Shown here: piece after piece, positions 1-18,382 of the stretch
How the letters are laid out: the number at the start of each line of letters is the position of its first letter
Position numbering within the stretch: the stretch's first letter is position 1
Source: a bacterium
GTDB lineage: Bacteria > Planctomycetota > UBA11346
Length of the DNA: 22,081 nt
Assembly: GCA_020049615.1 (NCBI GenBank)
Contig: JAIFKN010000227.1
Span: 1 to 22,081, forward strand
Direction of reading: 5' to 3'
Notes under the pieces: generated by a model
Told to the model about the DNA's origin: nothing
The model's input: the letters and a program-made list of their open reading frames with translations, nothing else
The model's database searches: none
Program-made: the position numbers and the translations under genes

Positions 1-1053
1 AGGAGGGGCTGACCAGCGACGAGGTCGCGGTGGCCATCGCCCGCGCCTGCGGGGTCAAGGCGGTCGATGTCGGCTTCGCCGGCCGCAAGGATCGGCATGC
101 GATCACCCGGCAGTGGTATTCGGTGCGTACGCCCGGCGAGGCGCCGCTGCAGGCGCTGCAGGGGGCCTTCGCCAAAGGCCGACTGGAGGTGCTCCAGGTC
201 GCCCGCCATGGCAACAAGATCCGCATCGGCCATCTGCGTGGCAACCGCTTCCGCCTCGGCCTCGGCCTCGGTGATGCGCGCGAGCTGGTGCCGTTGCAGG
301 CCGCCCTCGACACCCTGGCTCGGCATGGCATCGCCAACCGCTTCGGCCCGCAGCGCTTCGGCTTCGGAGGAGTCAACCTGCGCATCGCCAGCGCCTGGGG
401 TCGGGGCGATTTCGCCGCCGCCGTCGAGTTGATCGTCGAAGTCCGGCGACCCGCTGCCCAGCCGCTTCCGGCTCGGCCCCGAGGGCCGGGTGCTGGCGGC
501 GCTCAAGCGCGGCATGGAGCCGGAACGCGCGCTCAACCAGGCCGAGGAGCTGCGCAAGCTGATCGCTTCGGCCGGCCAGGCGGCGGTGTTCAACGCTGTG
601 CTCGACGCGCGCGCGGCGGCCGGCCTGTCGCACGCGCTGCGTGAAGGCGATATCGCCTGCACTCGCGACGGCATCCCCTTCCTCGTCAGCGCCGCCGATC
701 TCATCGACGTCAACCGTCGCGCCCAGCCGGGCGAGCTCGACGCGCTGACCACGGGCCCGATGCCCGGCACCTGGCGCATCGCGCCGAGCGACGCCATCCT
801 CGCCGAGGAGCGCGCCTGGAGCGCGGGGACCGGGCTTGACTGGGCCTGGTTCAACGACGGCGGCCCGTTCGAGAGCCCGGGCGGGCGGCGGCAGAACTAC
901 GTCACCTTCCGCGAGCCGCCCACGGTGCGGCCGGACGGCGACGTGGTCTGGGTCGAGTTCGCCCTGCCCTCGGGCTCGTTCGCCACCGAGGTGCTGGCTC
1001 AGGCGGGGGTCGAGATCCCCGCCGACCGTTCGGGTTCCGCCCCGTCAACCTGA
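1..1053 (+). pseudogene. truD: tRNA pseudouridine(13) synthase TruD, 5'-truncated by window edge and frameshifted
   Basis: TruD converts U13 of tRNA(Glu) to pseudouridine in the cytoplasm. The reading frame is already open at base 3, so the N-terminus lies outside the window. The family signature around the catalytic aspartate is visible as GFAGRKDRHAITRQ, with the Asp codon at 90-92. Frame 3 stays TruD-like through about base 432 (ending AAAVELIV). The family sequence then resumes in frame 1 as GDPLPSRFRLGPEGRVLAAL from 445 and runs to the stop at 1051-1053, including the typical C-terminal stretch FALPSGSFATEVL. One net +1 (or -2) change between about 433 and 448 therefore splits the gene. 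A deletion of one A and one G from short homopolymers would restore a smooth frame (ELIVESPGDP), which suggests possible sequencing error. If real, the protein loses its C-terminal half. Identity as truD is firm; whether it is a true pseudogene is open. Confidence 0.88.
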
Positions 1054-1641: not shown

Positions 1642-3702
1642 TCAGTAGGCGAACACCACCACTTCGTGGCAGGTCAGCGCCGGTACCGTGACGCGCACGG
1701 CGCCGATGCGCCGGCTGAGCGGCAGGCGGCGACCGGCGACGACCAGGCTGGCCGAGCGGATCCGTTCGGGCACGCGCAGGGCGACCGGAACGTCGCACAG
1801 CGTCGGAAGGTCCTCGATGACACTGGTGCGTCCACGAGCCTGCGGACTGCCGTAGGTCAGGTGCACGCAGTACCGGCGGTGCTGCGGCTGATGCACGACG
1901 TTGGCGCGGCCGGCCGACAGCAGGCTGGTCTCGAGGGTCGGCCGGGCATGGACGCGACGCAGCGCGTTCAGGAAGAGCTGGCGATGGACGCGGGCGCCAT
2001 GGTAGTAGTAGGTGGCACCGATGGGATGGGCGAGCCACAGAACGCGACCCTTGCCCAGCCGCCGTTCGAGGATCGCTGGATGGGCGGCATCCCGCTCGCC
2101 GTAGGGCGTGTTCTGGTGCGAGCAGTAGGCGGCGACGGTGCGGTCGAAGAGCGGTTCGCGGACGCTGGCCAGGACGCGTGCGGCCCGGCCGGGGCGGCAG
2201 CGCAGCGCCGGATCGTAGTTGAGGAACGGCGAGGTCGGGAGTTCGGTGGCGAGGGTGCTGCCGGCGACGGTGTAGTCGCAATCCCGCTCGCCGCGCCCGA
2301 GGTAGGAGGCGCCGAGGTCGAGGATGAAATTCTTGCGGGTCCGATCCAGGGCGCTTTCGCCGATCACCACCAGTGCGCCGCCGGCGCGGGTCCATGCCTC
2401 CAGGCGGGCGGCCTCGGCGTCATCCAGGCATTGCGCCCCGGTGAGGACGAGGGTGTCGTAGCGCGACAGGTCGGAGGTCGGACCGGCGGTCTCGAAATCG
2501 GTCTGCGTCTCCAGCAGCATCTGGGTGACGCCGTAGTCATGGTCGAGCTTCTGGGGGCCACCGACCACGCCGGCGACCGGGGTCGGGAGATCGGAACGCT
2601 CACGGCAGGTCAGGCGGACGGCGAGATTGGCCGAGGGACGTCCATCGAGGCCGTAGGCCTCGACCCGTGCGACGTGGGCATAGGCCGGAGCGAGGTTGCG
2701 GTAGGTCGCGAGATCCATCTCGCCGCTGGGATGGAGCTGATCGCCGAACGAGCAGCGCGCGCCCCAGGCGATCATGTTGGCCGCCTCGTAGCGGATCGCG
2801 TCGGGATGCTTGAAGCCGCCGAACTCGCCCCACGAGGTGTGGAACTTGCCCGACATCGCCATCATCTCCTTGCCGGCGGTGACCGGATGGCTGGCGAAGA
2901 ACTTGGCCCGCGGCTGGAACTTGTCGTAGCCGCCCCACACCGTCGGCAGATCCTCGAGTTCGAGGTGGGTCTGCTCGGTCAGCGAGGCGTCGGCGGAGTC
3001 GAGGTTGGCGCGGCCGTTGAAGAAGGCGGTCGCCCCGGGGCGCGTCTCCGCGATCGCCGCTTTGCACTCGCGCATGAACGATTCCCACTGTCCCTCGTGC
3101 CAGCTCCTGGTGGCTGCAACGTCGTCGAGGTCGATGCCGGCGGAACGCATCTGGCTGACCGCGGCGGGCGAGAAGCTGCGTTCGTGGAACATGATGTCGT
3201 AGAAGACGCCGTGCAGGGGGTAGCGGCTGCACACCTCGCGGGTCAGGTCCAGGACATGCTGGCGGTAGGCGGAGGCGATGCAGAGGAACTTCCACGACAC
3301 GATCGGCCGCTTGGCCGTCGGCTGCGCCTCGGACGGCGGGTTCATCCACTGCGGCTTCCCGGCGCGGTCGAGCGCCACCCATTCCGGATGCAGTTCGGCG
3401 TCGTTGGCCGACCAGCCGACGGTGATGTAGACGGCGGTGCGCACGCCGATGGCCTGGCAGGCGCGGATCTGCTCGCCCAGCAGGTCGAGCTTGGCGGCGA
3501 GATGCGGATGGCGCATGCCGACGCGGGTCGGGAAGTAGCACCAGCTGTGGTGGCACTTGGCGAACAGGGTGATGTAGTTCACCCGTCCGAGCTTCAGGGC
3601 GCGTTGGAAGCGCTTGCGGTCGAAGCGGCTGCCGACGCCGCGGATCGCCTCCGAGGTATGGAAGTCGAGGTGGACGTGGCGGGCGGGCAGGTGCGGGGTC
3701 AT
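1642..3702 (-). CDS. GHL6-type glycoside hydrolase with beta-galactosidase trimerisation-like domain
   Basis: 686 residues with an ATG start and no signal peptide, so probably cytoplasmic. Residues about 8-340 look like the (beta/alpha)8 barrel of hypothetical glycosyl hydrolase family GHL6, related in architecture to GH29 fucosidases and GH42-type galactosidases. Typical pieces are HLDFHTSEAI (11-20), the ITLFAKCHHSW block (44-54), GVRTAVYITVGWS (86-98) and GVFYDIMFHE (165-174). Asp169 in the last block is a candidate catalytic residue by position. Residues about 376-470 match the trimerisation/GATase-like domain of GH42 enzymes (HDYGVTQMLLETQTDFE, then LSRYDTLVLTGAQCL and the RAGGALVVIGE loop). 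A C-terminal beta-rich region follows. It is the last clear enzyme gene of the minus-strand operon, 75 bases after the esterase gene. The substrate is unknown; fucoside, galactoside or another exo-activity are all possible. Confidence 0.82.
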   Translation of the reverse strand: MTPHLPARHVHLDFHTSEAIRGVGSRFDRKRFQRALKLGRVNYITLFAKCHHSWCYFPTRVGMRHPHLAAKLDLLGEQIRACQAIGVRTAVYITVGWSANDAELHPEWVALDRAGKPQWMNPPSEAQPTAKRPIVSWKFLCIASAYRQHVLDLTREVCSRYPLHGVFYDIMFHERSFSPAAVSQMRSAGIDLDDVAATRSWHEGQWESFMRECKAAIAETRPGATAFFNGRANLDSADASLTEQTHLELEDLPTVWGGYDKFQPRAKFFASHPVTAGKEMMAMSGKFHTSWGEFGGFKHPDAIRYEAANMIAWGARCSFGDQLHPSGEMDLATYRNLAPAYAHVARVEAYGLDGRPSANLAVRLTCRERSDLPTPVAGVVGGPQKLDHDYGVTQMLLETQTDFETAGPTSDLSRYDTLVLTGAQCLDDAEAARLEAWTRAGGALVVIGESALDRTRKNFILDLGASYLGRGERDCDYTVAGSTLATELPTSPFLNYDPALRCRPGRAARVLASVREPLFDRTVAAYCSHQNTPYGERDAAHPAILERRLGKGRVLWLAHPIGATYYYHGARVHRQLFLNALRRVHARPTLETSLLSAGRANVVHQPQHRRYCVHLTYGSPQARGRTSVIEDLPTLCDVPVALRVPERIRSASLVVAGRRLPLSRRIGAVRVTVPALTCHEVVVFAY

Positions 3703-3777
3703 GTCGGGAATGATCGGCTATGCGATCGTGGCCGGCAACCATCACTCGCGCAATCGGCCGTTGCTTCCGCGCAAGGA

Positions 3778-4803
3778 TCAGCCGGCGAGGGCGGGGACGA
3801 GGCGGCGCAGGCGTTCGGCCAGGCGTTCGGCCATCACCGCGTGTCCCTCGCTGCTGGGATGCACCAGGTCGCAGGTCAGACCGGAGACATCGGGCAGGAT
3901 GTCGTGACCGTGCAGGAAGGTGACGCCATGGCCGGCGTGCTCGCAGGCGATGGCACGTAGCGTCTCGGCGTACGCGGTCATGGTGCGGGCGAGATCGTTG
4001 GGCGAGGGCAGCAGGTCGTCGCCGGTGAGGAAGGGCGAGATCAGGGCCAGCGGCCGGCCGGGACGCCGGCCGGTGATGGCGGTGACGAGGTGGCGGGCGC
4101 GGCGGGCGAATTCCTCCGGGGTGACGCTGTGGCGCATGTTGATGCCCAGTTCGCAGGTGGCGAAGTCCCAGTCGTCACGTCCGGCGATCCAGTCGGCCAT
4201 GCCCGTCTCGCAGAAGCACGAACCGCTCTGGCCGAGGTTCAACGCGTCGACGCCGAGCAGGCGCGCCGTGATGGCGACATAGCACTGCTGCCGGGTCACC
4301 GGCGTGTAGCCGTGGGTGATCGAGGAACCGTACGCCAGCCAGCGCAGGCGCGGCTTCTGCTCGGGCAGGGGCGGGGCGATGCTGCTGCCGAGCAGGTCGA
4401 TCCCATGCAGCAGTACCGGGCCGTCGAGGACGATGCGCCAGACCGCTGGATCGAAGCGGCGGCGGGCGAAGGCGGATGGGGCAAGGCGGGCGAGGCCGTC
4501 GTTCTCCCAGTCGAGGATCTGGCGATGCAGCCGTCCCGGCTCGAGCCTGACATGGGTCTGCAGCACATCGCCACGGTGGACGAAGAGATCGCCGCCGGTT
4601 ACCGCCGTCAGGATGACGGCGCAGCGTCGGCCGGAGACGGCGCGGAAACGAATCTCGGAGAGGGCGCAGTCGCCGGTGACCAGGGTGCCGTTGACGAACG
4701 GCGCCGAGACGCTGCGCGGCACCCGCCGGACCAGCGGTCCGGGATAGCCGCAGTCGGCGTCCAGTTCAGCGATGTTGTGGAGTTCACACAGGTCATCGAG
4801 CAT
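3778..4803 (-). CDS. SGNH/GDSL-type carbohydrate esterase with N-terminal jelly-roll domain
   Basis: 341 residues. The ATG at 4803 is chosen because it sits 4 bases after the stop of the upstream GH39 gene and is preceded by GAAGG. All SGNH blocks are present in the C-terminal half. Block I is GSSITHG at 159-165, with Ser161 as nucleophile. Block II is NLGQSG (Gly191), block III is GIN (Asn222), and block V is DLVHP with Asp312 and His315. Residues about 1-150 form a beta-rich domain like the N-terminal jelly roll of SsfX3/CE2-type esterases. Family knowledge suggests removal of acetyl or similar acyl groups from sugars. No signal peptide is visible, so it likely acts on imported acylated oligosaccharides inside the cell. 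Its tight coupling to GH39 suggests deacylation before or after that enzyme acts. The specific acyl group and sugar cannot be read from sequence. Confidence 0.87.
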   Translation of the reverse strand: MLDDLCELHNIAELDADCGYPGPLVRRVPRSVSAPFVNGTLVTGDCALSEIRFRAVSGRRCAVILTAVTGGDLFVHRGDVLQTHVRLEPGRLHRQILDWENDGLARLAPSAFARRRFDPAVWRIVLDGPVLLHGIDLLGSSIAPPLPEQKPRLRWLAYGSSITHGYTPVTRQQCYVAITARLLGVDALNLGQSGSCFCETGMADWIAGRDDWDFATCELGINMRHSVTPEEFARRARHLVTAITGRRPGRPLALISPFLTGDDLLPSPNDLARTMTAYAETLRAIACEHAGHGVTFLHGHDILPDVSGLTCDLVHPSSEGHAVMAERLAERLRRLVPALAG

Positions 4804-4807
4804 GGTG

Positions 4808-6283
4808 TCAGCCTTCGAGCAGGGCCACGCCCGGCCGTTCGAGCCGGAACCTGGCGATGAGCCGTCCATCCTCACGACGCAGCTGCAGGTCCTCGGCCGG
4901 CCGCAGCCGGTCCTGGGCCCGCAAGTCGTCGAGCTGGCGTGGCGTCGGATACGCCGGGGCGCCCATCGCCCGCCAGGCGGCGACGATGCTGTTCTCGCTG
5001 GCGCCGATGCGCCACAGTTGCGGGTTCCGCGCCGATGCCGGCAGCTCGACCTCGACCTCGCCGGCCTCGGCCGGGGCGTCGGATGCGGCGGGATGGCGCC
5101 ACACCAGCACGGCCGCGCCGCGCGGGCCGGTCGTCGCCACTGCCCCGTCGAGTTCACCGCCGCCCACCGGCACCGAGTCCGTGCCAAGGCGGTGCAGCAT
5201 GACGTGGGCGTTCCACGCCGGCTTGCGCAGGCCGTGCAGCGACAGCATGCCGTAGTGGCCCTGGAACTCGGAGGACTGGTAGCCGGCCTGGTCGTAGATG
5301 TCGGACAGGCTCCAGAAGGCGAAGGCGTCGGCCAGTTGCGACACCTCGGCCATGGTCTTGGCGATGAAGGCTGCCTCGAGCGGGCCCTCCTTCAGCGGAT
5401 CATGCGGGAACCATGAGCGCCCCCACTCATTCCAGTGCACCTCGCCGCGGTAGCCGCGCTGGCCGAGCGTGCGGCGCAGGCCGCGCACCACGCCGGTGGC
5501 GAAGTGCGGGCTGTCCTTGACCTTATGGCTGGCCGGTCCGTCGAAGGGCGAGAGCGGCTGGGATTCGCTGTCGTTGTTGTAGACGTGGGTGATGAGGTAG
5601 TCCGGCGTGGTGCCGTCGCGGGCGGCGTGGTCGAGGAATTCGGGGATCCATTCGCCGCGCGCGGTCGAGGGGCCGCCGAAACGCAGATCCGGATGCACCG
5701 ATTTGACCGCCCGCCAGGTCGCCGACCACAGGCGGAAGAACTCCTCCTGGGAACCGCCGAAGAAGCAGCCACGCAGGTTTGGCTCGTTCCAGCACTCGAA
5801 GTGCCACGAGCGCACCTCGTCCAGGCCGTAGCGTTCGATATGGTGGCGTATGCCCGAGGCGACGAACTCGCCCCATTGGCCGAGGTCACGTGGCATGCTG
5901 CTGTTGTTGCGGTCGGGCCAGCAGCGGCAGGTGCCGTCGGTGAAGTCGTCGGGCACGAAGCAGGTGGTGTAGACGGGCTTGAGGCCCAGTTCGATCAGGC
6001 CTTCCAGGCAGTAGTCGACAATCTGCCAGTTGGCCGCCTTGCTGCGTTCGGCGGGCGGCATCCGCCACTGCGTCAGCTGGTTGGCCCAGACGCGCATCTC
6101 AGGCGAATACATGGCGCAGGCCCGCACATGGCGGACGCCCAGCTCGTCGCGCGCCAGACGCAGGTGTTCGCGCTGGTCGGCGCGCACCAGCCAGCGGAAC
6201 TGGTCGACGTTGGCGAACGGCGCGAAGGTGTGGCGGAAGGGGGCGGAGGGCCCGTTCCAGGCGGGGCTCAGGCGGAGGGTCAT
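4808..6283 (-). CDS. glycoside hydrolase family 39 protein (beta-xylosidase-like), copy 1
   Basis: 491 residues from the ATG at 6283, which lies 31 bases after the stop of the GH94 gene; longer frames would run into that gene. The GH39 acid/base signature is WHFECWNEPN at 160-169 with Glu167. The nucleophile signature is VHWNEWG at 282-288 with Glu286. These positions fit retaining GH39 enzymes, whose characterised members are beta-xylosidases and alpha-L-iduronidases. The barrel occupies roughly residues 20-340 and a beta-sandwich follows, typical of clan GH-A GH39. No signal peptide is present, so it is probably cytoplasmic. The stop codon is 4 bases from the start of the SGNH esterase, which implies translational coupling. 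It is paralogous to the gene at 8765-10315, so the operon carries two GH39 enzymes that may differ in linkage or substrate. Confidence 0.9.
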   Translation of the reverse strand: MTLRLSPAWNGPSAPFRHTFAPFANVDQFRWLVRADQREHLRLARDELGVRHVRACAMYSPEMRVWANQLTQWRMPPAERSKAANWQIVDYCLEGLIELGLKPVYTTCFVPDDFTDGTCRCWPDRNNSSMPRDLGQWGEFVASGIRHHIERYGLDEVRSWHFECWNEPNLRGCFFGGSQEEFFRLWSATWRAVKSVHPDLRFGGPSTARGEWIPEFLDHAARDGTTPDYLITHVYNNDSESQPLSPFDGPASHKVKDSPHFATGVVRGLRRTLGQRGYRGEVHWNEWGRSWFPHDPLKEGPLEAAFIAKTMAEVSQLADAFAFWSLSDIYDQAGYQSSEFQGHYGMLSLHGLRKPAWNAHVMLHRLGTDSVPVGGGELDGAVATTGPRGAAVLVWRHPAASDAPAEAGEVEVELPASARNPQLWRIGASENSIVAAWRAMGAPAYPTPRQLDDLRAQDRLRPAEDLQLRREDGRLIARFRLERPGVALLEG

Positions 6284-6314
6284 GGGGGCGACGGTAGTGG
6301 GTGAAGCCGAGGTG

Positions 6315-8747
6315 CTAGCGGGGCGACCCCAGGTCCAGCTCGCAGCTGACGGCGACCTCGGTGCGGCCGGACAGCAGGCCGGCCTCAAGCAGGTCGCCTG
6401 GTATGACCTGGCCATCGACCACCAGGCGGTGCACGCCGCGTCCGAGGCCGCGCGGGTCACGGATGGTGAGACGCACCAGGCAGCCGCGGAAGCGCCGCGT
6501 CAACCGTACCTCGGGCCAGTCGCCGGGCAGGCAGGGTGCGATGCGCAGCCCGCGCGGTTCCGGCCGGAGGCCGAGCAGGTGCTGGGTGACGGCGAGATCC
6601 ATCCACGCCGCGGTGCCGGTCACCTGGGTGACGTTGGCCCAGCCGAACTTGGGGTTCTCGGGACCGATGATGTTGCTGACGTAGGCGTAGGCCTCGGCCT
6701 GGTAGCGGTCGAGGCCGACCTGGGCGATGGCCAGGTGCGGTACGAGTTGACGATACCAGCGCCAGGCCAGCGCCCGCTCGCCCAGCTTGGCCGCGGCGAT
6801 GATCGCCCAGGTGTTGGCGTGGCAGAAGATGGCGCCGTTCTCGCCGCAGCCGGGCGAATAGCCGCTGTAGGGATCGAGCTCCTCAGGGAAGGAGCGGAAC
6901 GACGGGTCGAGCTTCTTCAGGCCGACCGGCGTGCCCAGGCGCTGCTCCACCGCGGCGAGGGCGGTGCGGTTGCGCGCCTCGTCGCCGAGGCCGGCGAGGA
7001 TCATCCAGGTCTGGCTGTTGAGCCAGATCTGCCCGTCCCGGCAGGCGTGGGAACCGAAGGCCCGGCCCTCGTCATCGAAGCCGCGGATCCACCAGCCGCC
7101 ATCCCAGCCGCAGGCGAGGATGGCCGCCGACTGGCGGGCGATGGCGGCCTCGAATCCGGCTTGCGCGGCCGGGTCGCCGCGCAGCTGGGCCAGAGCGACG
7201 AGCAGGCGCAGGGCGTGGACGTGCTGCTGGGCCGCCATCATCGACTCGCCACGGCCGAGTTTGGAGAACTTGCCGATCGAGTCGTTCCAGTCGCCTTTCA
7301 TGGTCAGCGGCAGTCCATGCGCGCCGAGGTGCGACTCGGTGAAACGGACGCCGGCCTGGAGGTGGTCCCAGACCGACGCCTGGCCGTCCTCGCCCAGCCC
7401 ATCGGCGGCCAGCCATGGCGCGACCGCGTCGAGCAGTGCGGCATCGCCGGTCTCGCTGACGATGGCGTCCACCACCAGAGGCAACCAGAGGTGGTCGTCG
7501 CAGTGGATGGCGCTGCCCGGATGGGTGCGGTCGTCCGGAGACCAGCCGTGCACGCAGTGCCCATCGCGGTACTGCTGCGACAGCTGCTGCAGGAGCACGC
7601 CGCGCGCCCAGTCAGGCTTGCGGTAGGCGATGGCGAGCATGTCCTGGCAGGTGTCGCGGAAGCCGAAGCCGCTGCGGATGCCGCTGGCCTGCGAGCTGAT
7701 CGAGCGGCTGTAGCGTCCGGTGTGCACGCACTGCACCGGATTCCAGGTGTTGACCATGCGAGCCACATCGGCATCGGGCAGTTCGACCTGCAGCACGCCG
7801 AGGTGCTCGTCCCACCACGCGCGCAGGCCGGCCTTCAGCCGGTCGACCGCTCCGGGCGCGCGCAGCCGGCCGATGGCCGCCTCGGCCTCGTGCAGCGCGC
7901 GCGGCCAACCGACCACGGCGCGTGGACTGCCGCCGAGGAAGAAGGCATGGCGGCGGGATCCCCCGGCCGGCAGCTCGGAGCGGATATGCAGCGCTGCGCA
8001 GGGCTCTCCGCACAGGTTGTCCTCGTTGCCGCAGGAGCCGCGCTCCACCGCCTGCGGATCGCGCTCGTCGCGGTAGTGGCCGACGAAGGCGTCGCGGTCG
8101 CCCGTCCAGCTGGCGAGCGGGTCGCTGGCGGCGAACCAGACCAGCGGACAGCGGTCGAGCTGCGGGTTGAAGTGGAAGTGGCGGTAGAGGTAGACCAGGG
8201 CATCGCTGGGCGCGTGCCGGGTCACCTGCAGGTTGTGCCTCACATAATAGGCCCAGTTGATGTCCTGGCCCCAGTCCAGCAGGCACAGCTCGACGTAGGC
8301 GAAGATGTCGAGGCGGATCGCCTCGCCGGCGGCGTTGCTCAGGCGGAGGTCCCAGACCAGGGCGTCCTCGCCTGGCGGGATGAACAGCTCCAGTTCGGCG
8401 CTGATCGCCCCCTTGCGGGCGCGGAAGGTGGTGATGCCCGGGCGGTGCTCGGCGGCGAAGGCATCAAGGGCGGTCTGCGCGGGGCGCCAGCTCGGCGACC
8501 AGACCGTGCCATCGGGGTGCCGGATGTAGACGTAGAAGCCGGGGCTGTCGGTCGGCAGCTGGTTCAGGCGGTAGCGGCTGATGCGGCCCTTGAGCGGACT
8601 CCGCCACCACGCCAGCCCGCCCCCGGCCTGGCTGACGAAAGCATGCAGGTTGCCGTTGGAGAGGTAGTTGATCCATGGCGACGGCAGGGTGGGTGAGGTG
8701 GCGATGACGGCACGCTCGGCGTCATCGAAGCGATATGGGGCGGCCAT
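6315..8747 (-). CDS. GH94-family disaccharide phosphorylase (cellobiose/chitobiose phosphorylase-like)
   Basis: 810 residues, the usual length for GH94 inverting phosphorylases, which cleave beta-linked gluco-disaccharides with phosphate to yield a sugar 1-phosphate. The N-terminal domain (about 1-270) is the beta-sandwich. The (alpha/alpha)6 catalytic barrel includes GIRSGFGFRDTCQDML (356-371), DDHLWLP (417-423) and MKGDWNDS (483-490). Asp486 aligns in position with the general acid at about 490 in characterised members. A conserved late block reads GPENPKFGWANVTQVTGTAAW with the phosphate-site Thr region, followed by LRIAPCLP. No signal peptide is present, consistent with cytoplasmic energy-saving phosphorolysis. 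The gene is 17 bases downstream of one GH39 gene and 31 bases upstream of the other. Cellobiose, chitobiose, laminaribiose-type or cello-oligomer substrates cannot be separated by eye. Family assignment is strong; specificity is open. Confidence 0.9.
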   Translation of the reverse strand: MAAPYRFDDAERAVIATSPTLPSPWINYLSNGNLHAFVSQAGGGLAWWRSPLKGRISRYRLNQLPTDSPGFYVYIRHPDGTVWSPSWRPAQTALDAFAAEHRPGITTFRARKGAISAELELFIPPGEDALVWDLRLSNAAGEAIRLDIFAYVELCLLDWGQDINWAYYVRHNLQVTRHAPSDALVYLYRHFHFNPQLDRCPLVWFAASDPLASWTGDRDAFVGHYRDERDPQAVERGSCGNEDNLCGEPCAALHIRSELPAGGSRRHAFFLGGSPRAVVGWPRALHEAEAAIGRLRAPGAVDRLKAGLRAWWDEHLGVLQVELPDADVARMVNTWNPVQCVHTGRYSRSISSQASGIRSGFGFRDTCQDMLAIAYRKPDWARGVLLQQLSQQYRDGHCVHGWSPDDRTHPGSAIHCDDHLWLPLVVDAIVSETGDAALLDAVAPWLAADGLGEDGQASVWDHLQAGVRFTESHLGAHGLPLTMKGDWNDSIGKFSKLGRGESMMAAQQHVHALRLLVALAQLRGDPAAQAGFEAAIARQSAAILACGWDGGWWIRGFDDEGRAFGSHACRDGQIWLNSQTWMILAGLGDEARNRTALAAVEQRLGTPVGLKKLDPSFRSFPEELDPYSGYSPGCGENGAIFCHANTWAIIAAAKLGERALAWRWYRQLVPHLAIAQVGLDRYQAEAYAYVSNIIGPENPKFGWANVTQVTGTAAWMDLAVTQHLLGLRPEPRGLRIAPCLPGDWPEVRLTRRFRGCLVRLTIRDPRGLGRGVHRLVVDGQVIPGDLLEAGLLSGRTEVAVSCELDLGSPR

Positions 8748-8764
8748 GTCGGATCCGGAGGGTA

Positions 8765-10315
8765 TCAGCGGGAGGTTTCGCCCATGCCGGCGTTCCAGGC
8801 CGCCATGGCGGCCGGATCGGTGCCGCGTGGGAAGGCGCGCTGGCCGATCGGACGCAGCTCGAGATAGAGCAGCTCGCCCGGATCGAGGCGCAGAGGGATC
8901 TCGACGGCGCCAGCCGCGGGAGTGACGCGTTCGCAGGTCCAGGCCGGCTGGGCCATCGCGCGCAGAGCCTCTTCGACCGTCGGGGACAGGTCGTGGGGCG
9001 CGCCCATCGCCAGCCAGTGCTCATACGCGCTGCCTGCTCCTGGTCCGACCCGCGCCGTCAGCACAAGGTGTTCGCCGGCGCCCTCCACCGGCATGCGCAG
9101 ACGGTCGTTCCACGCTGCCGGAGCGGCGTCCTCCAGCAGGCGCTGGTTCCAGGCGACCACCCGCACGGCCTCGCCGTCGCGTGTCGCCGCCAGGCCGGCG
9201 GCGGGTGGCCGCGCGCCGTCGAGCTCCACGGTCAGCCGGCCACCGCGCAGGCGCCGCAGGAAGGCGAACGCATGGTAGGCCGCCTTGGGGATGCCGTGGA
9301 TGGTCAGCAGGCCGTAGGTCATCGAGAAGGCGGAGCGGGGGATCGCCCCTTCGCTGAACACGTCGCTGCCGACCCACCAGCACAGGGTGTCGAGGATGCC
9401 GTCCAGCTCGACCGCAGCCCGCGCCGCCAGCGCCGCGCCGTGGAGCTGGTCGTTGGTCGCGTTGGTGCACCAGTCCACCGTCTGCGCCGAGGCGCAGCTC
9501 ATCGCATTCCATTCCGTCCAATGCACCGGCAGGCCGGGACGCAGGGTCCGGACCCGTCGTACCGCCTCGGCGACGGTGGCGGCGAAGTACGCCCCGGGGG
9601 CATGCGGGCTGCCACGCCGATCCGGGAAGTCGACCTGCTCGTCCTGGGGGTAGAGGTGCGAGGAGACGAAGTCGAGCGGCACGCCGCTGGCATCGCAATG
9701 GCGGATGAGGTCCTCCAGCCAGCTCGCCTTCGAAGACGCCGGTCCGCCGACGCGCAGGGCCGGGTCGACCCGTTTGATGGCGCGGGCCGAGGCGTCGTAG
9801 AGCGCGAAGTAGGTCTCTTTACTGCCGCTCCAGAAGCAGCCGAGGTTGGGTTCGTTCCACACCTCGAACCACCAGGAGCGCACCTCTTCGGATCCGTAGC
9901 GGTCGATGAGATGGCGGGTGAACGTCTCGACCAGAAGTTCCCACTCGTCCATGCGACGAGGCGGGGTGACGTTCATGCGGTACCAGAACATGGTCTGGGT
10001 CCCCGAGGCCAACGGGGTCGGCATGGGGTTGAGTTCGACGAAGGGCTTGAGCCCGATGGCGAGGAGGGCGTCGTAGACCTGATCGACCCACCGCCACTGG
10101 AAGGCGAGGGTCCCATCCGCGAGACGGCTGACGACCTGCATGTCGTCGTCGAAGATGGCATGGAAGCGGCAGTGGCGGAAACCGATGTCGCGCTGCAGCT
10201 GGCGCAGATGCGCCAGCAGGTCCTCGCGCAGCAGGTCGAAGGCCCTGCCGACGGCGATGGCGTTGCGCCAAGGCTGGGCGTAGGGCTGTCCCGGGCCGGT
10301 TGTCAGACGGATCAT
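8765..10315 (-). CDS. glycoside hydrolase family 39 protein (beta-xylosidase-like), copy 2
   Basis: 516 residues starting at the ATG at 10315; first gene of the minus-strand CAZyme operon. The acid/base motif is WWFEVWNEPN at 148-157 with Glu155. The nucleophile motif is HWTEWN at 265-270 with Glu268. Both positions are close to those of characterised GH39 beta-xylosidases. Supporting barrel elements include RFHAIFDDDM (50-59), a classic GH39 strand, and DFVSSHLYP (215-223). A C-terminal beta-sandwich region extends to the end. No signal peptide is seen, so it is probably cytoplasmic. The start faces the divergent secreted CBM-like gene across a 222-base intergenic region with three inverted repeats. 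Compared with copy 1 it keeps the same catalytic pair but differs through most of the chain, so it is an old paralogue rather than a recent duplication. Confidence 0.9.
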   Translation of the reverse strand: MIRLTTGPGQPYAQPWRNAIAVGRAFDLLREDLLAHLRQLQRDIGFRHCRFHAIFDDDMQVVSRLADGTLAFQWRWVDQVYDALLAIGLKPFVELNPMPTPLASGTQTMFWYRMNVTPPRRMDEWELLVETFTRHLIDRYGSEEVRSWWFEVWNEPNLGCFWSGSKETYFALYDASARAIKRVDPALRVGGPASSKASWLEDLIRHCDASGVPLDFVSSHLYPQDEQVDFPDRRGSPHAPGAYFAATVAEAVRRVRTLRPGLPVHWTEWNAMSCASAQTVDWCTNATNDQLHGAALAARAAVELDGILDTLCWWVGSDVFSEGAIPRSAFSMTYGLLTIHGIPKAAYHAFAFLRRLRGGRLTVELDGARPPAAGLAATRDGEAVRVVAWNQRLLEDAAPAAWNDRLRMPVEGAGEHLVLTARVGPGAGSAYEHWLAMGAPHDLSPTVEEALRAMAQPAWTCERVTPAAGAVEIPLRLDPGELLYLELRPIGQRAFPRGTDPAAMAAWNAGMGETSR

Positions 10316-10391
10316 GCTGGGTACCTGGGATGCTGGAGTAGCCGCTGGGCAATCGACTCGCTCAACAGCTCGTCAGACTAAGCGCCAGGAG

Positions 10392-10433
10392 ATCCGCCGG
10401 ATAGCCAGGAACGCGCAAGGGGCTCCGGCGGAT
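10392..10433. promoter_or_regulatory. inverted repeat 1 in divergent CAZyme intergenic region
   Basis: A perfect 9-base dyad: ATCCGCCGG at 10392-10400 and CCGGCGGAT at 10425-10433. An inner AGCC/GGCT pair (10403-10406 and 10421-10424) extends the stem past a two-base bulge. It could be an RNA hairpin or a protein-binding dyad. Its position between two divergent CAZyme transcription units favours a control role, but no regulator is identified. Confidence 0.4.
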
Positions 10434-10447
10434 TGCGCAGGTATGAC

Positions 10448-10468
10448 GGTGCAGGCAAAAACTGCACC
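10448..10468. promoter_or_regulatory. inverted repeat 2, possible operator
   Basis: Perfect 7-base arms GGTGCAG (10448-10454) and CTGCACC (10462-10468) surround a 7-base centre GCAAAAA. The compact dyad with a short A-rich centre has the shape of an operator for a dimeric repressor such as a LacI- or GntR-type protein. No such regulator gene lies in the window, so this is inference from shape and position. Confidence 0.45.
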
Positions 10469-10476
10469 TCAGCCAT

Positions 10477-10505
10477 GCAAGAAACAACCTATCACGTTGT
10501 CTTGC
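10477..10505. promoter_or_regulatory. inverted repeat 3, upstream of the CBM-like gene
   Basis: Arms GCAAG(AA)ACAAC (10477-10488) and GTTGTCTTGC (10496-10505) pair over 10 bases, with a two-base bulge and a 7-base centre CTATCAC. The repeat ends 32 bases before the ATG at 10538, where it could act in the promoter or in the 5' untranslated RNA of the CBM-like/beta-helix operon. Confidence 0.45.
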
Positions 10506-10537
10506 CGCCATCGTTCACTGTTCGCCCAGGAGACCAC

Positions 10538-11065
10538 ATGCGCCCCATCCTCACCCTCATCCTCCTCGCCGCGTCGGCCATCGCTGCCGACAACCTCATC
10601 GTCAACGGCGACTTCTCCTCGACCGAAAGGCCGACCAGCGGCGCCTTCTTCGGCTGGAACGAAGGTGATCCGGCGCACATCACCCTGACAAGCGAGGGAA
10701 CGCAGTCCTTCGCCCGCAACGCCGACGGTGTGCACATCAACACCTGGCAGGACATCGTCGTCCAGCCGGGCTGGAAGGCGCTCAAGGTGTCGGCGCGCAT
10801 CCGGGTCAAGGGCCTGGAACGCACCGGCAGCGAGGTGTGGATGGTGCCCAGTCTGCAGTTCCTCGGCCGTGACGCCTCCAACCAGGTGGTTGGCGAACCC
10901 AAGTGGACCAAATTCATGGTCACCGCCGACCAGGACTGGACGAACCATAGCGCGGTGAAGACGCTGAGCGCTGAGACGAAGACGGTGCGCGTCTCGATCG
11001 AAACCTTCGGTGCCAAGGGAGTGTTCGACTTCGACGACATCACGGTTACGCCCATCACGCAGTGA
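10538..11065 (+). CDS. small secreted CBM-like (jelly-roll) protein, copy A
   Basis: 175 residues. The ATG at 10538 is supported by AGGAG at 10528-10532 with 5-base spacing and by a clear signal peptide MRPILTLILLAASAIA, cleaved before ADNL. The mature start NLIVNGDFSS, followed by an aromatic-containing strand, a GWKALKVSARIRVKG strand and a closing FDFDDITVTP strand, matches carbohydrate-binding modules of the CBM4/9-like jelly-roll fold. In that fold NxxxNGDFE begins the domain and DDIxL ends it. No catalytic domain is attached, so it is probably a free secreted binding protein or an accessory subunit. It lies 40 bases upstream of the beta-helix gene in the same direction, suggesting one operon and a joint role on polysaccharide. 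A clear homologue occurs in this window at 18383-18909. Confidence 0.82.
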   Translation: MRPILTLILLAASAIAADNLIVNGDFSSTERPTSGAFFGWNEGDPAHITLTSEGTQSFARNADGVHINTWQDIVVQPGWKALKVSARIRVKGLERTGSEVWMVPSLQFLGRDASNQVVGEPKWTKFMVTADQDWTNHSAVKTLSAETKTVRVSIETFGAKGVFDFDDITVTPITQ

Positions 11066-11105
11066 CCTCGCCTGCCGCGCACCACGTCAACCGTTAGGAT
11101 ACCAC

Positions 11106-13535
11106 ATGACCTGCTGTCGCCTCCTGTTCGCCCTGGCCGCCATCCTGCCTGCGGCGGCAGCCGAGTATATCGTCTCCCCGCAGGGCGATGACGGGGCGTC
11201 CGGCATGGCAGCGTCGCCGCTCCGGACCATCGGCGCCGCGGCCAAGCGCGCCGGTCCTGGCGACACGGTAACGATCCGGGCCGGCACCTACCGCGAGACG
11301 GTGGTGCCGGCGCGTTCTGGTGAGCCCGGCCGGCCGATCACCTTCCGCGGCGCGGCCGGCGAGAAGGTGGTCATCGATGGGTCCGATCCGGTCACCGGTT
11401 GGAAGCCGTGGAAAGACGGCATCGAGCAGGCGCCGATGCCAGGTGACTGGTTCAGTCGCGCGACGCCAGGTGATGGCGTCAACCTCTACGATGCAGCGGT
11501 GCTCAACAACGCCGACCAGGTCTTCGTTGATGGCGCCATGGCGTTGCAGGCGCGCTGGCCAAACAGCCCGACCCTGGATCCGTCCTTCCCTGGCAAGGCG
11601 GTGACCGAGAAGTTCATCGGCAAGTCGCGCGACAAGAGCGGCAATTGGACGACCGGCACGCTGGTGGACGAGCAGCTCGATCTGGATCCGCAGCAGGCAG
11701 TCGGCGCGCAGATCATGCTGCAGCCGAATCACGGGGCCTGGGCCTGGCTGCTTACCGGCCGCATCGCAGCCCTGGACGGCAAGCGCTTCACCTACGTCTC
11801 GCGCAGCGATAGCGGCAAGGACTTCTCCCAGGACAAGCTCGACGACAGGTCGCGCTACTACCTTTTCGACAAGCTGGAACTGCTCGACGCCCCTGGCGAG
11901 TGGCATCACGACAAGCAGGCCGGCGTCCTGTACCTCAAGTCGCCGGACGGCCAACCGCTCGGCACCCGGGTCAACGCCAAAAAGCGCCTATACGCCTTCG
12001 ATCTCAGCGAGCGTAGCCACATCGTCATCCGCGATCTGGCGATCCATGCCTGCACCATCACCACCGACCGGGACGGCGGCGGCGACAACATCCCCTACGG
12101 TGCGGATGGCGCCACGCGCTATCCCTGGCGCAATGCGGCGCACGGCCTGCCCAAGGAGCCGTACCATCAGCCCGACAAGTTCAGTGACGCACCAAGCAGT
12201 GATGTGGTGCTGGAGAATCTCGACGCCACCTACATCTCGCACTTCACTGACGTCAGCGGACACTTCTTCTGCCAATGGGGCCAGTCCTCCGGTATCGTGC
12301 TGTCGGGCCGCAACCACCGCATCGCCGGTAGCCGCATCCGCTGGAGCGCCGGCAACGGCATCACCCTGCTCGGGCGCGAGCATCGCGCCGTGGGCAACCT
12401 GATCGAGGACACCGGCTACGCAGCCAACGACTGCACCGCGGTGCATACCGGCGGCACCGAGCGCATCTCCAGCGACCACGAGATCGCCTGGAACACCATC
12501 CGGCGCACCGGCCGGTCCGGCCTGCTGCCGCGTTGCTTCTACCGCAGCGAGGCAGCCGGCGACAGCGACTGGAAGGGGCGCGTCCACCACAACGACATCA
12601 GCCAGTTCGGCATCCAGGACTGGGACGTCGGCGGGGTGTACGGTGCGGGCGCCGGGCGCTACCTGCGCTTCGACCACAACTGGATCCACGACGCCTACGA
12701 GCACGTCGACGACCTCGGCCAGGGCGCCTTCACCGCCAGCGGCATCTATCCGGATTATGGCTCCACCTGGGTGATCGACCATAACGTCATCTGGAACGTC
12801 GAGTGGGGCATCCATCTCCAGAACCAGGATGACAAGGCCAAGCCGGCGGGCTATCTGGTGTTCAACAACACTGTCGCGGTGCGCATGCTCGGTGGTCAGA
12901 AATCGATGCATGGTCCCTATGGCGTGGTGCGCAACAGCGATGCGCCCAACCAGGAGACGCGCATCGAGGACAACGTCCTCGTGCTGCTCGACCAGAGCGC
13001 CCGCTACAAGCCGGTGGATTTCGCCAGCGATCCGCAGGTACAGCGGGCGGTGGAGGGCAACGTCCAGGTCGCTGGCCTGACGAGCGGAGTCCTCGCGGGC
13101 GGCAGCGCGTTTCCGGCGTGCCTGGTCCCGAAGGCCACCGCCAGCGACATCGTCGGACGGTCGGGCAGGCGAGAGATGCGTACTGCCGCAGGCTTCCCTC
13201 TGCCGCCGATCGATTCCAGCCCGGACCGTGGCGCCTTTGCTTCCGGGGTCGAGCCTTGGCGGGCTGGCCACGAGGCTTGGCCCGGACGTCACGTCGAGGT
13301 CAAACCGAAACCTGCTGTTGCGCCCGCCGCGCCCGCCGCGCCCGCCGCGCCTGTTGCGTCAACCGCGCCTGTGGCGCCAGTCGCGCCAGTCGCGCCAGTC
13401 GCGCCAGTCGCGCCCGTCGAATCGTCATCCGCCATGCTAGTGACCATTGGCGCGATTGCCGCACTCGTAGCCGTCGTCTTCATCCTCGTGCTGTCCAACC
13501 GTCGTCCGGCAGGAGGACGCGGCCGTCGGCAGTGA
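11106..13535 (+). CDS. secreted right-handed beta-helix protein with Ala-Pro stalk and C-terminal membrane anchor
   Basis: 809 residues from the ATG at 11106, preceded by TTAGGA. A signal peptide (about 1-19, ending AAAA before EYIVSP) is followed by the typical entry of beta-helix enzymes: YIVSPQGDDGASG, then SPLRTIGAAAKRAGPGDTVTIRAGTYRE. The same entry occurs in GH120 xylosidases, GH141 enzymes and several polysaccharide lyases. Residues about 300-640 contain helix rungs such as IAWNTIRRTG, VHHNDISQFGI, FDHNWIHDAYEH, IDHNVIWNVEWGIHLQ and YLVFNNTVAV. Residues 739-771 are a tandem Ala-Pro-x stalk, then a hydrophobic span (about 776-797) and a basic tail RRPAGGRGRRQ. The protein therefore seems exported and held in a membrane by its C-terminus. 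It is probably a polysaccharide hydrolase or lyase, but I cannot name the catalytic residues. It is the second gene of the divergent CAZyme operon. Confidence 0.85.
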   Translation: MTCCRLLFALAAILPAAAAEYIVSPQGDDGASGMAASPLRTIGAAAKRAGPGDTVTIRAGTYRETVVPARSGEPGRPITFRGAAGEKVVIDGSDPVTGWKPWKDGIEQAPMPGDWFSRATPGDGVNLYDAAVLNNADQVFVDGAMALQARWPNSPTLDPSFPGKAVTEKFIGKSRDKSGNWTTGTLVDEQLDLDPQQAVGAQIMLQPNHGAWAWLLTGRIAALDGKRFTYVSRSDSGKDFSQDKLDDRSRYYLFDKLELLDAPGEWHHDKQAGVLYLKSPDGQPLGTRVNAKKRLYAFDLSERSHIVIRDLAIHACTITTDRDGGGDNIPYGADGATRYPWRNAAHGLPKEPYHQPDKFSDAPSSDVVLENLDATYISHFTDVSGHFFCQWGQSSGIVLSGRNHRIAGSRIRWSAGNGITLLGREHRAVGNLIEDTGYAANDCTAVHTGGTERISSDHEIAWNTIRRTGRSGLLPRCFYRSEAAGDSDWKGRVHHNDISQFGIQDWDVGGVYGAGAGRYLRFDHNWIHDAYEHVDDLGQGAFTASGIYPDYGSTWVIDHNVIWNVEWGIHLQNQDDKAKPAGYLVFNNTVAVRMLGGQKSMHGPYGVVRNSDAPNQETRIEDNVLVLLDQSARYKPVDFASDPQVQRAVEGNVQVAGLTSGVLAGGSAFPACLVPKATASDIVGRSGRREMRTAAGFPLPPIDSSPDRGAFASGVEPWRAGHEAWPGRHVEVKPKPAVAPAAPAAPAAPVASTAPVAPVAPVAPVAPVAPVESSSAMLVTIGAIAALVAVVFILVLSNRRPAGGRGRRQ
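13320..13418 (+). repeat. 9-base tandem repeat encoding the Ala-Pro-x stalk
   Basis: Eleven in-frame nonamers. Three exact GCGCCCGCC units (13320-13346) come first, then variants GCGCCTGTT, GCGTCAACC and GCGCCTGTG. Four exact GCGCCAGTC units (13374-13409) and one GCGCCCGTC close the array. The translation is Ala-Pro-Ala three times, then mainly Ala-Pro-Val. Two internally homogeneous blocks suggest local expansion by slippage, which could change stalk length between strains without shifting frame. Confidence 0.92.
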
Positions 13536-13684: not shown

Positions 13685-14932
13685 ATGCTGCTCGCGGCCG
13701 ACCTGTTTTTCCGCTCGGGGCGCTGGCGCCGGCTGGCAGTCGGCTGCGCCGTGGGTTCCTTGGCCTGGGCGGCGGATGGCGCCAACGAGTTGACCAATCC
13801 AGCTGATGTGCGAGCCAGGCGAGAGGCCACGCGCGGCCGTGAGGTGCAACGGCCTCGATCTGAAACACAGGATCCGCCAGCGAGCAGCCCGGCGGCACCA
13901 GCGACGTCGGCAGCCACGGCGCCTGCCAAGCAGGTCCCGGCCGACGAATCCCTGCCATGGACGGCACCCGCGGCACCACCGCCAGCGGCGCCGCGTCCGC
14001 CCTTGGTGCGTCCGACCCTGGTGGTCGGGGTCGAACAGGGCTGGTATGACATGGCGATCGAGAACGGCACCGATCCTTCCGCCGGCGGCGGCTCGCTGGG
14101 CACGGCCTACGCTGTCGGCTACCAGATCGAAGCGTTCACCATGACCACCATCCGCTCCAGCGCTCGGATCGACGATTGGGGTTTCTCGGCATTGGCTGGC
14201 GCCAATGAGGCGGATGGAGAGGTGGGCAGCACGCTGGCCGGTGTCATCCAGCGCTACGACAGCGATGAGTCCGGTTGGTGGGAGGCAGCGGTGAGCTGGG
14301 CATCCCTGCGCGGCTTCGCCACCACCGTCACGGCTGCAGGCGAACGTCTCGAGGACGCCATCGACTCGACCTGGCGCAGGGTGGCGGTCGAACGTCGCGG
14401 CTACCCGATGCTGTGCTGGGGCGTGGCTTATGAAGACTTCGCCATGCCCTCTGCCTACAGCCTGGATGACCCTGATGGCCAGGTGCTGGCGTTCTTCGAT
14501 ACGGACACGCGGTGGCGCACCGTCTCAGCGCATCTCGGCCTCGACAGCGTCATCGCTGCGACGCTGGAACGGCGCGAGGGGTGGATGCCGCTCTACGAGG
14601 TGCGGGTCGGCCTTGGATGCGGATCGCTGAGCTATGACGCTGGAGCCGTTGAGCGTTCTGCCGGGGGGTATGGATACCAGGTCGATGACAGCAGCGGCTT
14701 CGTCATGACCGCGCGGGCCGAGGGCGTGCTCGGGCTGGCGCTGGCAGGGGCTTGGCAGGGCCTGTGGTGCCAGGCCGCCATCGGGGGACGATTGCACGGC
14801 GCATGGTACAGCACCCTGACCGAGCACGACGAGGAGAACCCCACGTCAGCCACCTACGACACGCTGGTGCTCAACAGCGAGGTCAGCGTGGTGTCCTATG
14901 GGGTGTTTGCGCGCGTCTCGCTGGTGTGGTGA
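13685..14932 (+). CDS. exported protein with Pro/Ala-rich linker, probable outer-membrane beta-barrel
   Basis: 415 residues from the ATG at 13685, chosen because it puts a signal peptide (RRLAVGCAVGSLAWA, cleaved near 29/30 before ADG) at the N-terminus. A GTG at 13622 would add 21 residues, and neither start has a strong ribosome site. Residues about 60-110 are rich in Pro and Ala, like a periplasmic spacer. From 111 on, alternating hydrophobic/polar strands rich in Gly, Tyr and Trp appear (TLVVGVEQGWYDMAIENG, YQVDDSSGFVMTARAEG, VVSYGVFARVSLVW). The C-terminus ends in an aromatic residue after alternating residues, as in outer-membrane barrels recognised by the BAM complex. I do not recognise a named family. 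It starts 149 bases after the beta-helix gene in the same direction, so it could belong to the same operon or be independent. Confidence 0.72.
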   Translation: MLLAADLFFRSGRWRRLAVGCAVGSLAWAADGANELTNPADVRARREATRGREVQRPRSETQDPPASSPAAPATSAATAPAKQVPADESLPWTAPAAPPPAAPRPPLVRPTLVVGVEQGWYDMAIENGTDPSAGGGSLGTAYAVGYQIEAFTMTTIRSSARIDDWGFSALAGANEADGEVGSTLAGVIQRYDSDESGWWEAAVSWASLRGFATTVTAAGERLEDAIDSTWRRVAVERRGYPMLCWGVAYEDFAMPSAYSLDDPDGQVLAFFDTDTRWRTVSAHLGLDSVIAATLERREGWMPLYEVRVGLGCGSLSYDAGAVERSAGGYGYQVDDSSGFVMTARAEGVLGLALAGAWQGLWCQAAIGGRLHGAWYSTLTEHDEENPTSATYDTLVLNSEVSVVSYGVFARVSLVW

Positions 14933-15037: not shown

Positions 15038-15844
15038 TCAGCCCCGGCGCAGGCGGCGCCAGCGTGCCCAGGCCTGCGGACTGGAGAAGCCCAGGGCCTG
15101 AGCGATCCCGGCCTCGTTGCAGCCTTCGCGCCGCAGGACCTCGGCCTTCCGACTGCGGCACCGGTCGATGAATCCACCCACCGTACGGCCGGTGGCGGCG
15201 CGGAAACAGCGGGCGAAGTACGCACGGCTGACTCCGGCGAGACGGGCCAGGCTTGCCAGGGAATTCCCAGCCCCGCCGCTGGCTTCGAGGTGGCGGCAGA
15301 TGGCGTCGAGGGCGTCAGCCCGCAAGCGGCCGCCCGCCACCGCCGGTTGCCAGCCAGCCTCGGCGACCTGAACCAGCACCGATGCCAGGGCGCAGCGCAG
15401 GCGCCGGGGTCCATCGTTGCCGATCCGGATGGCGAAGGGGTCGACGCCGCAGGCGGCGGCGCTGAGGGCGAGGACGCTGCGCGCACTCCACGTCGTGCCG
15501 CCCCCGACCAGGCTGACCAGGATGCGGCCGCCCATCCAGGCCAACCAGAGCTGGCGGGCGCCGGATCCCGGCGGCAGGCCGCAATCATGCGGGGTGCCGC
15601 CAGGAAGGACGGCGACCAGGCCGGCGGCGGCGTCCTGCACCGCCTCGCCGACGGCGAAGCCGCCCTCGCCGCCCAGGCTGAGCATCACCTCGGCGTGCGG
15701 ATGGGCATGGCGGTGACGACGGCGCCAGGCGGCTTCGGCCGGCTTCGGCCTCAGGCCCTCCGGCGATCCCGGGGCAGCCAGGCGCCAGGCACTGGGCGTC
15801 AGCAGCAGGTCGAGTTCGCGGTCGGCGAGGAAGGAGTGGGCCAT
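15038..15844 (-). CDS. AraC-family transcriptional regulator
   Basis: 268 residues from the ATG at 15844, preceded by CTGGAAACC. A longer frame reaching 15931 would overlap the divergent gene's ribosome site and is less likely. The N-terminal half has a cupin-type sensor pattern with RHRHAHPHAEVMLSLGG near 42-58 and a later PGGTPHDCG strand. The C-terminal 75 residues are the double helix-turn-helix of AraC proteins: SLASLARLAGVSRAYFARCF (helix-turn-helix 1) and then GIAQALGFSSPQAWARWRR (helix-turn-helix 2, in place of the usual GFxxxSYFxRxF form). Such proteins usually sense a small sugar or amino-sugar ligand and activate a neighbouring operon. The gene diverges from the DegT aminotransferase gene across about 89 bases that carry a direct repeat, so that operon is the likely target. 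Confidence 0.86.
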   Translation of the reverse strand: MAHSFLADRELDLLLTPSAWRLAAPGSPEGLRPKPAEAAWRRRHRHAHPHAEVMLSLGGEGGFAVGEAVQDAAAGLVAVLPGGTPHDCGLPPGSGARQLWLAWMGGRILVSLVGGGTTWSARSVLALSAAACGVDPFAIRIGNDGPRRLRCALASVLVQVAEAGWQPAVAGGRLRADALDAICRHLEASGGAGNSLASLARLAGVSRAYFARCFRAATGRTVGGFIDRCRSRKAEVLRREGCNEAGIAQALGFSSPQAWARWRRLRRG

Positions 15845-15851
15845 GGTTTCC

Positions 15852-15908
15852 AGATGGTCACTCCAGGGCACCCGCGGGCAATCGACGGCCGGTGGAGATG
15901 GCTCACCA
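15852..15908. promoter_or_regulatory. imperfect direct repeat, candidate AraC-type binding sites
   Basis: AGATGGTCACTCCA begins at 15852 and AGATGGCTCACCA begins at 15896, 44 bases apart (about four helical turns) in the same orientation. AraC-family activators typically bind direct repeats near the divergent promoter. An alternate CCCGCGGG palindrome lies between them at 15871-15878. The match is imperfect and was found by eye. Confidence 0.35.
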
Positions 15909-15933
15909 TGCGCAGGAGAGAACGGAGCCATCC

Positions 15934-18251: not shown

Positions 18252-18382
18252 TCGCCGGCTGTGCGCTGGACCACGGGGGAGAGCATGGCGAGGAGTGCGA
18301 GGATGAGGTGCATGTGCTGTCGCTCCAGCCAGGCAGCGGCATTGTCCAGGCGCAGAGGGTCGCCATGCCGATGTGGATCGGG

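What the first reader, a model, noticed from the sequence alone, without database searches (positions are those of the whole stretch)
1642..13535. Divergent CAZyme locus combining intracellular GH39 x2, GH94, SGNH esterase and GHL6 with a secreted CBM-like/beta-helix pair
Seen: five signal-less CAZyme genes on the minus strand (gaps of 4-75 bases) face two signal-peptide genes on the plus strand across a 222-base region. Known: GH39, GH94 and SGNH esterases act respectively by exo-hydrolysis, phosphorolysis and deacylation. Inference: this is one polysaccharide-use system with envelope cleavage followed by cytoplasmic finishing, possibly on an acylated hetero-polysaccharide mixing xylose- or uronic-type and beta-glucose-type units. 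I know no standard locus with exactly this set, and no SusC/SusD-type genes are present.
Basis: partly seen in the sequence, partly recalled or inferred. Interest (0 to 1): 0.7.

Follow-up and report, generated by a model that had tools for sequence, protein, structure and literature searches.

The report
Two-compartment fucose-polysaccharide digestion gene cluster
Seven neighbouring genes of an uncultured, probably planctomycete bacterium encode known kinds of sugar-cutting and sugar-binding proteins that likely take apart a fucose-containing polysaccharide, first outside and then inside the cell; in the nearest relative found, most of these genes are present but scattered, so this is an unusual combination of known parts rather than a new kind of system.

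The parts
1642..3702 (-).
   Evidence: 6tvk E 7.5e-108 over residues 7-686; PF14871 2e-28; residue numbers; ALfuk2 D154/E235 from passages of PMC10154630
3778..4803 (-). SGNH-type esterase, 341 aa; S161, D312, H315 in the expected motifs (motifs recalled)
   Evidence: PF13472 6.7e-15; weak match to 4lhs, E 8.8e-4; residues
4808..6283 (-). GH39a, retaining glycosidase type, 491 aa; E167 and E286
   Evidence: PF01229 2e-61; 4m29 E 4.3e-62; 967 homologues at E <= 1e-20 among the 7997 candidates scored
6315..8747 (-). GH94 inverting disaccharide phosphorylase type, 810 aa; catalytic D489; acceptor-site changes S359 and G635
   Evidence: PF17167 2.8e-100; 8ho7 E 8.4e-123; residues
8765..10315 (-). 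GH39b, beta-xylosidase-like, 516 aa; E155 and E268
   Evidence: PF01229 4.5e-89; 4m29 E 6.6e-80
10316..10537 (.). 222-base divergent intergenic region with a perfect 10-base inverted repeat (10392-10401 / 10424-10433), a candidate operator
   Evidence: 0 of 500 dinucleotide shuffles reached 10 bases; motif absent from the 5 upstream stretches of G001 counterparts examined
10538..11065 (+). Small secreted CBM-like jelly-roll protein, 175 aa
   Evidence: AlphaFold2 model pLDDT 77.8; Foldseek matches include CBM16, CBM22, CBM4; 7 homologues aligned, 38-77%
11106..13535 (+). Secreted GH141-like beta-helix protein, 809 aa; D507 and D550; low-confidence Pro/Ala-rich linker about 732-777; C-terminal helix 778-797 read as a membrane anchor

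Best explanation
This is a CAZyme gene cluster of a probably planctomycete bacterium whose seven products are predicted to break down an ester-substituted, likely fucose-containing polysaccharide in two compartments. Likely order of events (all inferred from families and residues; no activity was measured): a GH141-like beta-helix enzyme, predicted to be exported and held at the membrane by its C-terminal helix, would cut the polymer outside the cytoplasm with the help of the small CBM-like protein. Oligosaccharides would enter through a transporter that was not recognised among the window genes. In the cytoplasm the SGNH esterase would remove acyl groups, the GH151 enzyme the terminal alpha-L-fucose, and the two GH39 enzymes beta-linked, xylose-like end residues. 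The GH94 phosphorylase would split the remaining beta-glucosyl disaccharide with phosphate, giving glucose 1-phosphate and an acceptor sugar that is probably not glucose.
Against: GH141 is polyspecific: fucosidase, xylanase and endo-fucanase members are known, so the fucose link rests mainly on GH151. Sequence alone ranks GH120 (3vst, 2.7e-12) above GH141 (5mqp, 5.9e-6), and Foldseek TM-scores to 5mqp are moderate (0.44 and 0.57). The five-gene run is not conserved: counterparts lie on four contigs in G001, 0 of 4 GH39a relatives at 45% or more shows GH94, GH151, SGNH or GH39b beside it, though some of these contigs are short, and L003 has the GH94 (60%) without partners. No transporter, fucose-catabolism gene or sulfatase was recognised in the window. 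Co-transcription was not shown; no promoter-like site was found in 10200-10700.
Confidence: 0.42

Rival explanations
1. A plant-cell-wall (acetylated xylan or xyloglucan) cluster: the beta-helix enzyme acts as a xylanase like Xyn141E, the GH39 pair are beta-xylosidases, the SGNH enzyme is an acetyl-xylan esterase, GH94 finishes gluco-oligosaccharides and GH151 only trims fucosyl side groups.
For: GH39b is closest to beta-xylosidases (4m29 6.6e-80); a GH141 xylanase exists (passages of PMC5593877); in G001 the CBM-like/beta-helix pair lies beside GH30 and GH4 genes.
Against: No GH10, GH11, GH43, GH67, GH115 or xyloglucanase family was hit among the window proteins scanned; GH151 and GH141 together are not needed for plain xylan.
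Confidence: 0.27
2. The neighbours do not form one pathway: several independent one- or two-gene sugar functions happen to lie side by side in this genome.
For: In G001 they are placed apart, GH39a behind a regulator with a LacI-type sugar-binding domain and GH151 between an AraC-type and a LacI-type regulator; only CBM-like/beta-helix keeps its neighbour.
Against: Gaps of 4-75 bases in one direction in the window; the same families run together in G002 and partly in G001; gene order between window and G001 is scrambled in general, so loss of order is weak evidence.
Confidence: 0.22
3. The beta-helix protein is not a GH141 hydrolase but a GH120-type beta-xylosidase, a lyase or a carbohydrate epimerase that shares the fold.
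Confidence: 0.08

Closest known systems
GH151 alpha-L-fucosidase ALfuk2 (PDB 6tvk)
   Same: Full-length alignment of the 1642-3702 protein; nucleophile and acid/base residues kept
   Different: Sits in a five-gene run with GH39, GH94 and an esterase; activity untested
GH141 (BT1002, PDB 5mqp; Xyn141E; endo-fucanases Wf141)
   Same: Beta-helix fold and catalytic Asp pair
   Different: Only 24% identity in the structural alignment; Pro/Ala linker and C-terminal helix read as a membrane anchor; Pfam GH141_M match below cut-off
GH39 beta-xylosidases (PDB 4m29/4ekj)
   Same: Both catalytic Glu; near whole-length similarity
   Different: The two window GH39 are only about 30% identical to each other; GH39a has Cys, Asp and Gln where the aligned xylosidase has His, Glu and Glu (alignment; that these line the sugar pocket is recalled)
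GH94 cellobiose phosphorylase (PDB 3qde, 8ho7)
   Same: Near whole-length similarity, catalytic Asp and the Arg-Asp donor-site pair
   Different: Positions equivalent to an acceptor-side Arg (R362 of CgCBP; mapping recalled) and Lys (role recalled) are Ser359 and Gly635
Planctomycetota CAZyme gene clusters (PMC11131199) and Bacteroidota PULs
   Same: Co-localised CAZymes of complementary kinds
   Different: No SusC/SusD; no transporter recognised in the window; gene set not kept together in the nearest relative found

Membership tests
GH151 alpha-L-fucosidase | Full-length sequence relation to a characterised GH151 enzyme | tested here: met
   6tvk, E 7.5e-108, query 7-686
GH151 alpha-L-fucosidase | Nucleophile D154 and acid/base E235 of ALfuk2 | tested here: met
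   D169 and E250 in the window protein (alignment, numbers; ALfuk2 residues from passages; the 29-residue offset between chain and paper numbering is inferred)
GH151 alpha-L-fucosidase | Release of alpha-L-fucose | not testable with these tools
   needs the purified protein
GH141 | Beta-helix catalytic fold closest to BT1002 | tested here: met
GH141 | Catalytic Asp pair D523/D564 of BT1002 | tested here: met
   D507 and D550, invariant in 46 of 46 aligned sequences; the 5-residue offset of the 5mqp chain numbering is inferred
GH141 | Pfam GH141_M insertion domain at curated cut-off | tested here: inconclusive
   20.9 bits against 27, only profile positions 122-152 of 156
GH39 | Family profile and both catalytic Glu | tested here: met
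   for both proteins; roles of the two Glu from passages of PMC6933502
GH39 beta-xylosidase | Activity on xylosides | not testable with these tools
   GH39 also holds a beta-glucosidase that looked like a xylosidase by sequence (passages of PMC6933502)
GH94 phosphorylase | Family profile, catalytic Asp | tested here: met
GH94 cellobiose phosphorylase | Cellobiose-type acceptor (+1) residues | tested here: inconclusive
   Ser359 and Gly635 replace Arg and Lys in the alignment; the role of the Lys and the exact numbering are recalled, not taken from a call
CAZyme gene cluster | At least two CAZymes separated by at most two genes | tested here: met
   window annotation; definition from passages of PMC11131199
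Bacteroidota-type PUL | SusC/SusD pair | tested here: not met
   no such family in the 16 window proteins or pieces scanned

The most novel reading that the evidence does not exclude
A two-compartment fucoglycan pathway bracketed by two unrelated fucosidase families, a membrane-anchored GH141 outside and a GH151 inside, and closed by a GH94 phosphorylase of a new specificity that splits a beta-glucosyl disaccharide whose other sugar is not glucose. Planctomycetes and verrucomicrobia would re-assemble it from movable modules rather than keep it as one fixed locus.
Probability: 0.25. Interest if true: 0.55.

Novelty: new variant of a known kind. Interest (0 to 1): 0.33.

Why it matters
PMC11131199 (passages) states that, to its authors' knowledge, no planctomycete CAZyme cluster had been characterised functionally, and lists GH151 and GH141 among families that may target fucose-rich polymers. 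If the reading is right, this locus gives testable enzymes for fucose-containing polysaccharides, of which fucoidans are described as slow to degrade (abstract of PMC12786026), and a GH94 with an unknown acceptor, a practical target for making new disaccharides. It is also a small example of a cluster whose parts co-occur across genomes while their order does not.

Tried and rejected
Rejected: (1) 'GHL6' as a family of unknown function; a solved alpha-L-fucosidase matches over the whole length. (2) A strictly conserved seven-gene locus; see G001. Survey of 98 relatives of G001 (G001 itself counted), matches of 45% identity or more over most of the query: GH151 in 2 of 98 (a third genome, G015, has a 106-residue piece at 47%), GH94 in 3 of 98, GH39a in 4 of 98, beta-helix over at least 570 residues in 4 of 98 (a fifth, G013, at 43%), SGNH in 0 of 98 (best 43%). 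For some genomes only part of the first-look candidates were scored (at most 10 or so), so these are lower bounds. GH39b and the CBM-like protein were not surveyed across the 98. Relatives of G002: GH151 at E <= 1e-30 in 3 of 145; the GH94 of its type only in G002 itself, next best 34%. (3) The inverted repeat as a shared operator: absent upstream of the five G001 counterparts looked at. (4) RNA elements or tRNAs: none found. (5) The window's organism by name: no own genome is held. Planctomycetota is inferred from names given to homologues: P0122 (76%), P0020 (49%), and P0246 and P0101, whose longest contigs (12467 and 6354) have the lengths of the G024 and G015 contigs read here. More distant homologues also carry Verrucomicrobia and other names, so this is not settled.

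GH151 neighbourhoods: of 12 places with E <= 1e-50, 10 were read; GH94 lies near in 1 (G052), a weak beta-helix match in 1 (G029) and an MGH1-like match in 1 (G021). G002's truncated GH151 adds one with all three. Neighbours beyond the ends of the short contigs could not be seen, and no chance expectation was computed for these co-occurrences.

Print: none of the titles and abstract starts listed (12 of 24 papers, 4 of 4, 8 of 8, 11 of 12) names this combination; apart from passages the texts were not read. Two listed and unread papers on Verrucomicrobiota glycan use (PMC8857213, PMC13174399) may bear on it.

Dropped or corrected rows: one search used a wrong frame for the beta-helix gene, corrected; the overlap rule hid the L002 GH94 and MGH1 rows, which searches show. 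The alanine dehydrogenase had no match in G001, which shows nothing by itself.

Full report
What is there. The window carries five tightly packed minus-strand genes without signal peptides (1642-10315; gaps 75, 4, 31, 17 bases) facing two plus-strand genes with hydrophobic N-termini (10538-11065 and 11106-13535) across 222 bases. Pfam confirms GHL6, SGNH, GH39, GH94, GH39 and, just below its cut-off, a beta-helix. The CBM-like protein has no Pfam family, but its model is a jelly roll whose structural matches include CBM16, CBM22 and CBM4 modules.

GH39 and GH94. Both GH39 proteins keep the two catalytic Glu and are closest to bacterial beta-xylosidases, but they are only about 30% identical to each other. 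GH39a differs from the aligned xylosidase at a His and two Glu (that these contact the sugar is recalled), so a different end sugar is possible. GH94 is closest to cellobiose phosphorylase (8.4e-123) with the catalytic Asp (D489) and the Arg-Asp donor pair kept. At the positions of an Arg and a Lys next to the acceptor it has Ser359 and Gly635. PMC5309861 (passages) assigns CgCBP R362 to contacts at the -1 and/or +1 subsites; mapping that Arg to this column, and the role of the Lys, are recalled. PMC8741936 (passages) reports that +1 residues are less conserved, in line with the varied specificity of GH94. A non-glucose acceptor is therefore likely, not shown.

Conservation. The nearest relative found is MAG Bin_7_3 (G001, reached through L001). 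Counterparts: GH39a 79%, GH151 80%, GH94 78% and GH39b 81%, beta-helix 85% (84% by tblastn) and CBM-like 76%; SGNH only 43%. They lie on contigs C209, C208, C65 (GH39b and GH94, about 4.4 kb apart) and C47 (the pair). Contexts differ: GH39a follows a regulator with a LacI-type sugar-binding domain, GH151 sits between an AraC-type and a LacI-type regulator, GH39b follows a GH141-like gene by 10 bases, and the CBM-like/beta-helix pair lies beside GH30 and GH4 genes. GH94 is 0.3 kb from its contig end, so its downstream neighbour there is unknown. Only the CBM-like/beta-helix order is kept; it is also suggested in three further contigs by equal contig lengths. The TruD and AraC-DegT flanks are rearranged as well, so lost order says little against shared function.

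Recurrence of the theme. In a Verrucomicrobia MAG (L002, G002), ROK, GH94 (57%), a GH141-like protein with the Asp pair, an MGH1-like glycoside hydrolase and GH151 (39%, cut by the contig end) follow one another in one direction. In L001 a GH141-like gene, GH39b, an MGH1-like gene and GH94 share a contig. G052 has another GH94 near a GH151 gene, and G021 an MGH1-like match near GH151. Against this, L003 has the GH94 (60%) with none of the partners, 0 of 4 GH39a relatives shows any, and 7 of the 10 GH151 places read in the G001 survey show neither GH94 nor a beta-helix nor an MGH1-like match. So families, not gene order, recur, and not always; no chance expectation was computed.

Mechanism. The best-supported account is a two-step pathway: cutting of a polysaccharide outside the cytoplasm by the membrane-anchored GH141-like enzyme with a free CBM-like protein, then cytoplasmic deacylation, defucosylation, GH39 trimming and GH94 phosphorolysis that saves energy as glucose 1-phosphate. 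Sequence relations, predicted fold and conservation of catalytic residues are shown; substrate, export, order of events, import and co-expression are inferred. The main rival is a plant xylan or xyloglucan cluster, since GH141 contains a xylanase and GH39b looks like a xylosidase. The next is that the genes are unrelated neighbours.

Verdict. The finding is real and the inside/outside split is sound. The set is a variant of the CAZyme gene clusters known from Planctomycetota (passages of PMC11131199), not a new kind of system. The new points are the fucosidase-family signature on both sides and a GH94 with an altered acceptor site.

Noticed in passing
window 1-1053 (+): TruD is split over two frames (ORFs 30-644 and 490-1053); the counterpart in G001 (L098 4621-5766) is one 381-aa frame, so the window copy has a frame break, either a sequencing error or a broken gene.
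   Followed up: partly
window about 18300-18909 (-): A second CBM-like gene, about 31% identical to the first over 83-91 residues, sits beside the GH2-like gene; its reading frame appears to shift near its C-terminus.
   Followed up: partly
window 18957-22058 (-): 1033-aa protein with only a GH2 sugar-binding domain recognised (PF02837) and no recognised catalytic domain; it starts 23 bases from the window end, so its true start may lie outside.
   Followed up: no
window 15038-17151: AraC regulator and DegT/DnrJ-type aminotransferase are divergent with 2 bases between the start codons; the pair is kept in G001 C225 (58% and 87%).
   Followed up: partly
window 13685-14932 (+): 415-aa protein with a hydrophobic N-terminus and no Pfam or NCBIfam match, directly downstream of the beta-helix gene.
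   Followed up: no
L002 9026-16923: ROK, GH94, GH141-like, MGH1-like and GH151 genes in one direction in a Verrucomicrobia MAG, possibly a simpler form of the same pathway.
   Followed up: partly
window 10392-10433: Perfect 10-base inverted repeat with 22-base spacer in the divergent region; 0 of 500 shuffles of the region reached 10 bases.
   Followed up: partly
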